From contig LATX02000003.1 in the NCBI GenBank assembly GCA_001466705.2, positions 1-64,000 on the forward strand: a stretch of 64,000 nt of DNA, in the 5' to 3' direction. The position numbers were made by a program, and so were the translations under genes. The stretch is from Moniliophthora roreri. Taxonomy: Eukaryota; Basidiomycota; Agaricomycetes; Agaricales; Marasmiaceae. The notes under the pieces are model-generated. The model was not told the DNA's origin. It was given only the letters and a program-made list of their open reading frames with translations, and did no database searches. Each line of letters opens with the position of its first letter. Position 1 is the first letter of the stretch. Shown one piece after another: positions 12,466 through 15,229 of the stretch.

Positions 12466-12624
12466 TTACCATGCGCCGTAAGCACCAAATACCTTGGCAC
12501 CTTCCCGCTTCTTGAAGGGTAAACCGTAAACACCATCGGTAGGATGCGGGATCTTTGCCTCTCGTTTCATGAATGGCAAGCCGTAGACATCGAGCGCTGG
12601 AGGCTCAATTCTTGCCTCTCGCTT
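12466..12624 (-). repeat. Kex2-type peptide array, 3 units, in GMC copy B
   Basis: Residues 632-683 read KR, EARIEPPALDVYGLPFM, KR, EAKIPHPTDGVYGLPFK, KR, EGAKVFGAYGAW, stop. Each unit starts EA or EG right after Lys-Arg, as in KREA sites of fungal alpha-factor precursors, and shares a G/D-[V/A]-Y-G core. The layout suggests Kex2 cleavage after KR, trimming of basic residues by a Kex1-type carboxypeptidase, and possibly removal of EA dipeptides. Peptide release is inferred, not shown. Confidence 0.75.
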
Positions 12625-15229
12625 TTGGTTTTGAGCGTTCGGCCAGTCGACTTTGATAATATCAGCGGCCTGTGAAGAGGAAACACCATAAGCTGACGTT
12701 CCACGTTATATCAACATAAGACAGAACGAGCTTTCTCTGCGACAGCGATGACGGTGGGGTTGATGGCAGCAGAGACCAACATAGGCAGGACACCAGCATC
12801 GACGACACGGACGTTCGATAGACCGTAGACTTTTAGACGAGAGTCGACGACACCTGTTTGACAGCATCAGCATTTGCAGTCGAATCAAAAGCTTGTAGTC
12901 TCACCGCCAAGCTCCCTAGAAGCCATAGCCGTAGTACCAGATGCGTGATTGTGCACAGTGACATTGTTCTCGAGATAACTGATAATATTCGCATGATTAG
13001 TATGACCCACAAGTAAAAGAGAGTATATCACTAACGTTGTAAAGTCTGCATCAGTGGTAGCTTCAGGTCCAGGAGCAATCGGGACTTCAACGAGGTCGGA
13101 GAAGGGAGCAGTCGCAGCCCATGTACGGGTGAATTTCAGACCTTCCACGAGGAGATCCTTGTCTATATGCACGAAGAAACATCAGCGAATAATTCCCATT
13201 ATATAGGCCACAGAGCATACCGAGTTCATTCGACAAGAAGCCCATATCAATAACAGGAGCTACGAGAGGATCAGTGCTTGAGATGTGCTGAGAATCAATC
13301 AGCGTCTAAAGACGGTCCAAGAACATGCCGTGGAACTCACGACTGAACCCCTGCTGAAGGGATGCATGCCAACGGGAACAACGGAAACATATGAAGCTCC
13401 AGGTTCAGCAAGCTCGGTGGAGCTTCGTGAAGGCACTACGGTGAAACCAACTGTTCCAGCTTTGCCTTCAACAGTAATGTTTCTGTAGAAGCCGTACTGG
13501 GCCTTTTGGAGAGGAGTCAAGTTGTCGGAGGCGAGAACCGCATCGATCTTGGCAATGTAGGATTCCATGTAGGAGTCGTTGGTGATACTGCGAAGGGGAA
13601 TGACACCATAGATGAGAGGCGTGAATGTGTAAGGACCAGTACGAGATTCCTCGCTAAACGAGAGCTTAATCATTGCTGTTGAATGCAATCTTCGAGTTAC
13701 TTACTATTGAGCCAGAGCCTCGTTAGCGTATGTCACGTTGTTACGAAGTTCGTCTGCGAAAACAGAGGTCAGAAGATATGAAAACTGTGAGATTTAGATC
13801 ATACCCAAAGTTAGAGTCCCATCGCGAAGCTTAAATTCGGTGATGACTAGTGGGTGGTCCTATAAAAGTCACAAATTCAGAGACAACTTTATCAAGTCAC
13901 CGCTAATGATACCGCACCTGAAGGTTTTCTCCAATCTGAGGAAGGTCAACGACAGGAGTGATCCCGAGGGAGGTCAATAACTGTGCGTCGCCAACACCAG
14001 ACAGCTCAAGAAGCTGAGGGGTCTTGACAGCACCTGGGACACAAATTGAACATGAAGGCATATTAAAGGGTGATGAAGAACATACCGGCAGCAAGGATAA
14101 CCTCTCTAGTAGCGTTCACACTGTACTTCACACCGTTGAAGGAGAAATCAACACCAGATGCCACGATTGAATCACCCGTAGACTTCCCGAAATTGATCTT
14201 GATTGCTTGTGCGCCAGTCAAAAAGACAAGGTTGGGGTCTTGCGAGTGAGGAGAAAAGTATTGAGAGCCAGTGTACGAACGGATGCCTTTGAGTGGGTCG
14301 ACATTTCGTGCGAGCAGGGGGAAGCCGGTAGAATCTCCGCCATCCTAAAGAACAAGAAACCGAAACAGTCAGAAATAGAGTCGTATACCGTGATAGTATG
14401 TGCATACGGGGTTGAAATTCAGAGGCAAGCCAAGGCTTTGGACAGCCTCGACCATTGGAACATCTACGTCACTTGCCCAGTTGGGGTAGCTCAACTATTT
14501 CAGGAGGTCGGTTTCAGCTAGTAGAGGAAAAAAGTTCGAGAATTTACTTGGATTGGGCCATCGTGACCGTGGGCGTCAGTGAAACTTTGGGTAACTTCCT
14601 GACCAGGGTACCAAAGAGTTCCGGGTTCGGTCCAGTTTTCAGACTTCTTGAAGTACGGGAGGAGGCCGTCGAACGACCAGTCATCCTCGTTACCATAAAT
14701 GGACGAAAAAGCGTTGTAATCTTCAGCATGTCCACGTTGCCAGACCTGCAGATATGTCAACCAGGCGATGATAGTTGGATTTTATCATGTACTTACCATG
14801 GCATTAGATCCACTTGACCCTCCGAGCATCTTCCCTCGCGAGATGAAGATAGAACGATTTGCAGCTCCTGGTTGAGGAATGGTGCTCATCATCCAGTCAT
14901 AATCTGGATTTGACAAGTATCCCTGTCCTTGTGGGACGGCGATCCTGGCGTCGGAGACGTGATCCTGTCCAGCCTCGATGAGACCAACACGAACATTGGG
15001 ATCTTCAGCTAGACGTGTCGCAACAATAAGACCTGCAGTTCCTCCGCCAACGACGACGTAGTCGAATGTCTTCTGAGTGAAGGCGAGTGGGCTGAACTCT
15101 GCACACCAGGATAAGCACGTTGGAGTAGTCAAACTTCTGAATACACTTACCGACCGTCCTCTTTTGAGGGTTAGGACGAGATGCCACAAGATGAGGCAGC
15201 AGGAGGAGCGCGAGTGATGCTGCGTACAT
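12466..15229 (-). CDS. Secreted GMC oxidoreductase with C-terminal Kex2 peptide array (copy B, complete)
   Basis: Fourteen exons on the minus strand: 15229-15151, 15098-14797, 14745-14548, 14494-14408, 14344-14086, 14033-13918, 13859-13805, 13753-13705, 13653-13341, 13287-13221, 13162-13036, 12978-12905, 12853-12732 and 12669-12466, giving 683 residues with all phases consistent. A signal peptide (MYAASLALLLLPHLVAS) is followed by a Lys-Arg site. The FAD-binding loop VVVGGGTAG is at 41-49, and GGSSGSNAM matches GMC signature 1. GAVKTPQLLELSGVG at about 309-323 is signature 2. The catalytic pair is H562 (HASGT) and N607 (AINPT), as expected for FAD-dependent alcohol or sugar oxidases of family AA3. 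The substrate is unknown. Usual GMC proteins end soon after AEKAADIIK (residue about 622). Here about 60 residues follow, holding three KR-delimited peptides. The donor of intron 13 is GC, not GT. Confidence 0.88.

What the first reader, a model, noticed from the sequence alone, without database searches (positions are those of the whole stretch)
12466..12669. GMC oxidoreductase fused to a Kex2-type multi-peptide precursor
The enzyme reaches its normal end (AEKAADIIK) and then, in a separate last exon, continues with three short peptides. Each is preceded by Lys-Arg and begins EA or EG, as in KREA sites of fungal pheromone precursors. The peptides share an [V/A]-Y-G core. A secreted flavoenzyme passing through the Golgi would meet Kex2, so the peptides could be released and perhaps modified by their own enzyme, much as borosins join a methyltransferase to its core peptide. 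I know of no described GMC-peptide fusion of this kind.
Basis: partly seen in the sequence, partly recalled or inferred. Interest (0 to 1): 0.92.

Follow-up and report, generated by a model that had tools for sequence, protein, structure and literature searches.

The report
Flavoenzyme carrying a Kex2 peptide array
A probably secreted fungal enzyme of the GMC flavin oxidase family in a cacao-pathogen genome ends in a row of short, strongly conserved peptides set between protease cut sites, so one gene may yield both an enzyme and several small peptides.

Summary
On the minus strand, a 14-exon GMC oxidoreductase gene (15229-12466) ends with three peptides, each after Lys-Arg and starting EA or EG. 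The last exon also codes the enzyme's final helix (AADIIK), so the tail is not a separate exon. Moniliophthora roreri protein P0001 equals this copy apart from a three-residue splice difference. A diverged neighbour (21411-18541) has five units in frame; a copy on contig C123 has three. The 11 KR sites of these three copies are kept, and the tails look at least as constrained as the enzyme (dN/dS 0.055-0.10 against 0.16-0.22). None of the 119 other listed GMC homologues and none of five paralogues read has the tail; a tail-directed protein search returned only P0001. YGLPFxKR occurs nine times in the 59-Mb genome, always in these arrays. Most likely Kex2 cuts the tail in the Golgi, releasing enzyme and linear peptides: a Kex2 repeat array fused to an enzyme. 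A single-peptide GH128 fusion in Coprinopsis is the nearest precedent. Self-modification by the flavoenzyme has no direct evidence, though bacterial GMC enzymes that modify ribosomal peptides were reported in 2026. Expression, secretion and peptide release are inferred.

The parts
12466..15229 (-). Copy B: GMC oxidoreductase gene with C-terminal peptide array, 14 exons (the copy in the finding)
   Evidence: Exon mapping from copy C, open in frame; equals M. roreri P0001 apart from a 3-residue splice difference; Pfam GMC_oxred_N and GMC_oxred_C on P0001
12466..12669 (-). Copy B last exon: end of the enzyme (AADIIKVDW), linker PNAQNQ, three Kex2 units, stop
12568..12618 (-). Copy B peptide 1 EARIEPPALDVYGLPFM (KR at 12624-12619)
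12511..12561 (-). Copy B peptide 2 EAKIPHPTDGVYGLPFK (KR at 12567-12562)
12469..12504 (-). Copy B peptide 3 EGAKVFGAYGAW (KR at 12510-12505)
18541..21411 (-). Copy C: diverged tandem paralogue, 14 exons, 718 aa, five Kex2 units
   Evidence: Gene model; B-C DNA identity 93.5% over 2804 bases
18544..18804 (-). Copy C array: five KR-E[A/G] units (KR starting at 18804, 18747, 18690, 18642, 18585)
   Evidence: 105-nt spacing in repeat family D5
7182..7385 (-). Copy A last exon with the same three units; its gene is interrupted by a one-base N at 7608; probably an assembly duplicate of copy B

Best explanation
One transcript codes a secreted GMC flavoenzyme followed by a Kex2-processed repeat array. 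Shown here: the gene structure, both GMC domains, a tail that the structure prediction leaves without confident structure, and protein-level conservation of peptides and KR sites among the copies. Judged by eye only: a signal peptide, followed by a KR at residues 23-24. Inferred: in the Golgi a Kex2-type protease cuts after each KR, freeing the folded enzyme and three or five linear peptides. A Kex1-type carboxypeptidase would then trim trailing K/R, and a Ste13-type dipeptidase would remove EA. Enzyme and peptides leave the cell together and act separately, the peptides probably in signalling or in contact with other organisms. The array was gained in the Moniliophthora lineage at the end of an older enzyme gene, then duplicated with it and lengthened or shortened by whole units.
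For: KR-E[A/G] units in frame in three distinct copies, five in one. Tail dN/dS 0.10 (B-D), 0.055-0.068 (B-C), 0.10 (D-C); enzyme 0.16-0.22. Units 2 and 4 of copy C differ by 8 nucleotides and no amino acid. Random changes on the same sequence keep the protein as well in 0.00025-0.0016 of 20,000 trials for B-D, in none for B against units 1, 2, 5 of C, and in at most 0.0001 for unit 2-4. YGLPFxKR: nine matches in the genome, all in the arrays, reversed control 0. 0 of 119 other listed homologues carries a KRE[AG] unit in its last 110 residues. AlphaFold: residues 630-686 below pLDDT 50, 528 of 686 residues at 90 or more. The genome matches the proprotein-convertase P domain twice, on C45, and DPPIV_N on C68. 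In C. cinerea a Kex2-flanked peptide of a GH128 protein was detected by mass spectrometry (PMC9769878 section 7).
Against: No transcript or peptide was examined. The array is known from one protein cluster only (P0001, nine members, others not seen) and this genome. EG starts (units 3 and 5 of C, unit 3 of B and D) do not fit the XA/XP Ste13 signature of PMC6339444. Low pLDDT is expected for a tail without homologues in the alignment. Low dN/dS shows protein-level constraint, not release. Tail dS (0.30-0.46) exceeds enzyme dS (0.09-0.18), so units may have exchanged sequence and the copies are not independent. Units 3 and 4 of C were left out of the B-C simulation, and units 3 against 5 give only 0.017-0.030. 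The P-domain and DPPIV hits were not checked for catalytic parts.
Confidence: 0.66

Rival explanations
1. The tail is a removable C-terminal propeptide of the enzyme (folding aid, inhibitor or sorting signal). Kex2 cuts it, but the fragments have no separate job.
For: Kex2 and Kex1 are reported to process cell-wall enzymes by removing N- or C-terminal propeptides (PMC9769878 discussion). The enzyme also has a KR at residues 23-24, like an N-terminal pro-site.
Against: Repeated near-identical units, unit-wise length change in copy C and constraint on the peptide sequence are more than a propeptide needs. 119 other listed homologues and the five paralogues read lack it.
Confidence: 0.18
2. Borosin-like self-modification: the flavoenzyme oxidises residues (for example Tyr or Trp) of its own tail before Kex2 frees the products, making a RiPP with a built-in enzyme.
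For: Enzyme and core peptides share one chain. Each unit carries a [V/I/A]YG core and the last ends in Trp. Bacterial GMC enzymes ThaO and TheO modify ribosomal peptides (PMC13083261 section 9). The second active-site His is Ala605 here, so the chemistry may be unusual.
Against: ThaO and TheO make thiazoles at Gly-Cys; these peptides have no Cys. Loss of the second His is shared with tail-less relatives (18 of the 31 other rows of A1). The same enzyme exists without a tail. The model gives no confident contact of tail and enzyme.
Confidence: 0.12
3. Gene-model or assembly artefact: the tail is non-coding or an annotation read-through.
For: The window has one-base N joins and near-identical copies A and B. 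The last intron of copy B has a GC donor.
Against: Copies C and D have GT donors and the same tail. A deposited M. roreri protein carries it. Synonymous changes dominate.
Confidence: 0.03

Closest known systems
KEX2-processed repeat proteins (KEPs) of fungi (PMC6339444, PMC7329392, PMC9769878)
   Same: Three or more similar peptides between KR sites; some start with an XA dipeptide as in Ste13-type precursors.
   Different: Here the array is a short tail on a full enzyme of about 625 residues. Repeats are 5.2-8.4% of the protein by the minimum-motif rule, below the 15% cut-off of PMC6339444, whose pipeline would discard it.
C. cinerea GH128 protein 365456 with one Kex2-flanked peptide (PMC9769878, section 7)
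   Same: An enzyme domain and a Kex2-flanked small peptide in one protein; the peptide was detected.
   Different: Glycoside hydrolase with a single non-repeated peptide before the C-terminal enzyme domain; here a flavoenzyme followed by a repeated array.
ThaO/TheO, GMC-family RiPP maturases of Acidobacteriota (PMC13083261, section 9)
   Same: GMC enzymes tied to ribosomal peptides.
   Different: Separate precursor gene, bacterial, thiazole formation at Gly-Cys; here fused, fungal, no Cys in the peptides.
Borosins (methyltransferase with C-terminal core peptide; abstract start of PMC7878506 in the listing)
   Same: Enzyme domain followed by a C-terminal peptide in one chain.
   Different: No direct evidence that this enzyme acts on its tail; several Kex2 units.
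Dikaritins such as ustiloxins (PMC7329392 passages)
   Same: Kex2-separated Tyr-containing units.
   Different: Enzyme is fused; no UstYa match on this contig.
GMC oxidoreductases; nearest solved chains 7vkd (GMC oxidoreductase), 4ynt (glucose oxidase, putative), 5oc1 (aryl-alcohol oxidase)
   Same: Both GMC Pfam domains.
   Different: Extra C-terminal array; Ala at the second catalytic His position.

Membership tests
KEX2-processed repeat protein | Signal peptide for secretion | tested here: inconclusive
   No signal-peptide program was run. By eye MYAASLALLLLPHLVAS looks like one; KR follows at residues 23-24.
KEX2-processed repeat protein | At least three similar fragments between Kex2 sites | tested here: met
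   Three units in B and D, five in C, by inspection of the translations; the published programs were not run.
KEX2-processed repeat protein | Repeats make up at least 15% of the protein (PMC6339444 rule) | tested here: not met
   5.2% (P0001) and 8.4% (C) by the minimum-motif rule; 6.7% and 10.7% by unit length (rule). So KEP-like, not filed as a KEP under that definition.
KEX2-processed repeat protein | Peptides released in vivo | not testable with these tools
   Needs mass spectrometry data.
GMC oxidoreductase | Both GMC domains and the fold | tested here: met
   PF00732 112.3 bits and PF05199 105.9 bits, both over cut-off; model mean pLDDT 86.5, pTM 0.85.
GMC oxidoreductase | His followed by His/Asn catalytic pair (pair recalled; His in the aligned solved chains) | tested here: not met
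   First His kept (H562, 32 of 32 rows); second position is Ala605, and 19 of 32 rows, P0001 included, lack His. Filed as GMC by sequence and fold; ordinary alcohol oxidation is not claimed.
Borosin-like self-modifying RiPP | Enzyme modifies its own C-terminal core | not testable with these tools
   No product data; indirect evidence is mostly against.
Dikaritin RiPP | UstYa (DUF3328) gene nearby | tested here: not met
   23 UstYa matches in the genome, none on contig C3 or C123.

The most novel reading that the evidence does not exclude
A RiPP precursor with a built-in flavoenzyme: the GMC domain, which lacks the usual second catalytic His, oxidises the [V/I/A]YG cores of its own tail before Kex2 frees several modified peptides, a flavin-based counterpart of the borosins and a fused, fungal cousin of the bacterial GMC maturases ThaO and TheO.
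Probability: 0.11. Interest if true: 0.9.

Novelty: new variant of a known kind. Interest (0 to 1): 0.62.

Why it matters
Fungal peptide surveys look for small, repeat-rich precursors; one published pipeline removes proteins whose repeats are under 15% of the length (PMC6339444). Enzyme genes with a peptide array at the end would be missed by it. This case, with the Coprinopsis GH128 protein, suggests that secreted enzymes can carry hidden peptide messengers and that enzyme genes deserve a scan for terminal Kex2 arrays. It is kept in several gene copies of a cacao pathogen, where secreted peptides and oxidases both could bear on the host.

Tried and rejected
Looked for a stand-alone precursor with the same peptides: none scored among 11 candidates, and only the four arrays in the genome. 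Looked for the tail on other GMC proteins: none of the 119 others listed (of 2991 hits, 7996 candidates scored); the tail-directed search scored 89 candidates and returned P0001 alone. Five related GMC loci of the same genome end without a tail; one search gave 71 exon-level matches to GMC_oxred_C, and the other loci were not read. Exon shuffling was dropped because the tail shares an exon with the enzyme end. A link to the strongly induced 'gmc oxidoreductase' genes of the 2014 M. roreri expression tables (60 against 30 days; PMC3948071, passages) could not be made: gene ids do not map to this locus. Pfam on 17 distinct window pieces (unspliced frames) gave FAD_binding_4 in four (one below cut-off), BBE in one, a sub-threshold zinc finger in one and nothing in eleven, so neighbours are only partly known. 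Supplementary tables could not be opened, so a listing of this protein in Table S2 of PMC7329392 cannot be excluded. The bacterial GMC maturases found there moved self-modification from 0.09 to 0.12, the novel case from 0.08 to 0.11 and the main reading from 0.68 to 0.66.

Full report
WHAT IS THERE. The window lies in a genome of 59.4 Mb in 154 contigs. The deposited GMC oxidoreductase P0001 of Moniliophthora roreri is identical to the protein modelled from the finding's locus, apart from a three-residue difference at one splice site, so the window is M. roreri or very close to it. On the minus strand there are three copies of this gene: A (last exon 7385-7182), B (15229-12466, the finding) and C (21411-18541). 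A fourth, D, is on contig C123. Copies B, C and D were modelled with 14 exons each. Copy A is interrupted by an N at 7608. A and B are 99.86% identical over 2750 bases and 100% over 457, and single Ns stand at 3350, 7608 and 10690, so A is probably an assembly duplicate and is not counted as independent evidence.

THE TAIL. In copy B the last exon reads AADIIKVDWPNAQNQ, then KR-EARIEPPALDVYGLPFM, KR-EAKIPHPTDGVYGLPFK, KR-EGAKVFGAYGAW, stop. Copy C has five units: EARIEPPSLGVYGLPFM, EAKIPHPTDGVYGLPFK, EGTKVFGAYGLPLE, EAKIPHPTDGVYGLPFK, EGAKVFGAYGAW, with a 105-nt spacing. Copy D has three, with IYG in place of VYG in the first. The donor of the last intron is GT in C and D and GC in B; P0001 implies a donor nine bases downstream in B, in the same phase.

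IS IT UNDER SELECTION. By Nei-Gojobori counts, enzyme dN/dS is 0.22 (B-C), 0.18 (B-D) and 0.16 (C-D). For the tail it is 0.10 (B-D), 0.068 or 0.055 (B-C, by choice of matching units) and 0.10 (D-C). Between B and D two of the four amino-acid changes lie in the linker and two in peptide 1; peptides 2 and 3 are identical. The 11 KR sites of B, C and D are kept while their codons vary. Random changes placed on the same sequence, 20,000 trials for each of three transition biases, left the protein as intact in 0.00025-0.0016 for B-D, none for B against units 1, 2 and 5 of C, at most 0.0001 for C unit 2 against unit 4, and 0.017-0.030 for unit 3 against unit 5. Limits: copies share history, units may exchange sequence (tail dS 0.30-0.46 against enzyme 0.09-0.18), and parts of the genes have been homogenised (B-C introns 1-4 differ at 5.5%, introns 5-13 at 15.7%).

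HOW WIDESPREAD. Of 2991 database hits, 120 were listed. P0001 alone has KRE[AG] units in its last 110 residues; two others have two KR there. A search with the tail region scored 89 candidates and returned only P0001; the tail alone returned nothing. P0001 stands for nine sequences whose other members I did not see. Of five related GMC loci of the same genome that I read, none has a tail. The DNA pattern for YGLPFxKR matches nine times in the genome, all in the four arrays, and the reversed control not at all. The nearest tail-less relatives, from Mycena and Collybia at 56-59% identity, end a few residues after AADIIK or ASDIIK. The array therefore looks like a lineage-specific gain on an older enzyme; other Moniliophthora genomes were not searched directly.

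THE ENZYME. P0001 passes both GMC Pfam cut-offs. The best solved chains by sequence are 7vkd (GMC oxidoreductase), 4ynt (glucose oxidase, putative) and 5oc1 (aryl-alcohol oxidase). The AlphaFold model has mean pLDDT 86.5 and pTM 0.85; residues 1-25 and 630-686 are below 50. The first catalytic His is kept (H562), but the second is Ala605. In the alignment of 32 of the 120 listed proteins, 19 rows, P0001 included, lack His there; a motif count over 112 of the 120 gives 41 without His. This is a clade feature and not linked to the tail.

PROCESSING MACHINERY AND NEIGHBOURS. The genome has two matches for the proprotein-convertase P domain on C45 and five for DPPIV_N on C68; their catalytic parts were not examined. 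UstYa has 23 matches, none on C3 or C123. Next to the GMC copies are berberine-type FAD enzymes: FAD_binding_4 over the cut-off at 22348-22791, 27770-28309 and 44069-44563, below it at 42296-42772, and BBE at 45041-45559.

MECHANISM. Shown: gene structure, repeated units, protein-level constraint, a tail without confident structure in the model. Inferred: secretion, Kex2 cutting, trimming, release, peptide function. I hold linear release with separate functions most likely (0.66), a propeptide without peptide function next (0.18), and self-modification third (0.12).

COMPARISON WITH PRINT. KEPs are defined and surveyed in PMC6339444 (abstract, passages and sections 9 and 24) and PMC7329392 (passages and section 13). 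The first requires repeats to fill 15% of the protein; here it is 5.2-8.4%. PMC9769878 (abstract, passages, sections 7, 10 and 14) reports a GH128 protein with one Kex2-flanked peptide that was detected by mass spectrometry; this is the nearest precedent. PMC13083261 (passages and section 9) reports bacterial GMC enzymes, ThaO and TheO, that form thiazoles in separate ribosomal precursors at Gly-Cys. PMC11778925 (passages) concerns MftG, a GMC enzyme that reoxidises the RiPP mycofactocin. The T. reesei cluster in PMC7099791 has GMC genes near, not fused to, a precursor (passages). PMC9233826 was seen in passages. Searches for GMC with Kex2, RiPP or precursor terms, seen as listings apart from the papers named, showed no GMC-peptide fusion. 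They cover open-licence PMC papers only, and supplementary tables were not open to me.

VERDICT. A real enzyme-peptide fusion, constrained among its copies: a new variant of the KEP kind, interest 0.62.

Noticed in passing
window 7608, 10690 and 3350: Single-base Ns sit at joins between near-identical blocks (5407-7607 against 10691-12891; 873-1172 against 3351-3650), which suggests unresolved assembly duplicates.
   Followed up: partly
window 10377-10654 (second copy with the same arms at 16024 and 16263): Short element with 34-nt terminal inverted repeats, 97% complementary, 210 nt between the arms; looks like a MITE-type element upstream of the GMC gene.
   Followed up: partly
window 22348-23594, 27770-29028, 44069-45562, 41164-42772: Several berberine-type FAD oxidase genes lie beside the GMC copies, a local group of flavoenzymes; the fourth rests on a match below the cut-off.
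   Followed up: partly
P0001 residue 605 (copies B, C, D): Second catalytic His of GMC oxidases replaced by Ala; 19 of 32 aligned rows, P0001 included, have A, T, P or V there, a GMC subgroup with possibly unusual chemistry.
   Followed up: partly
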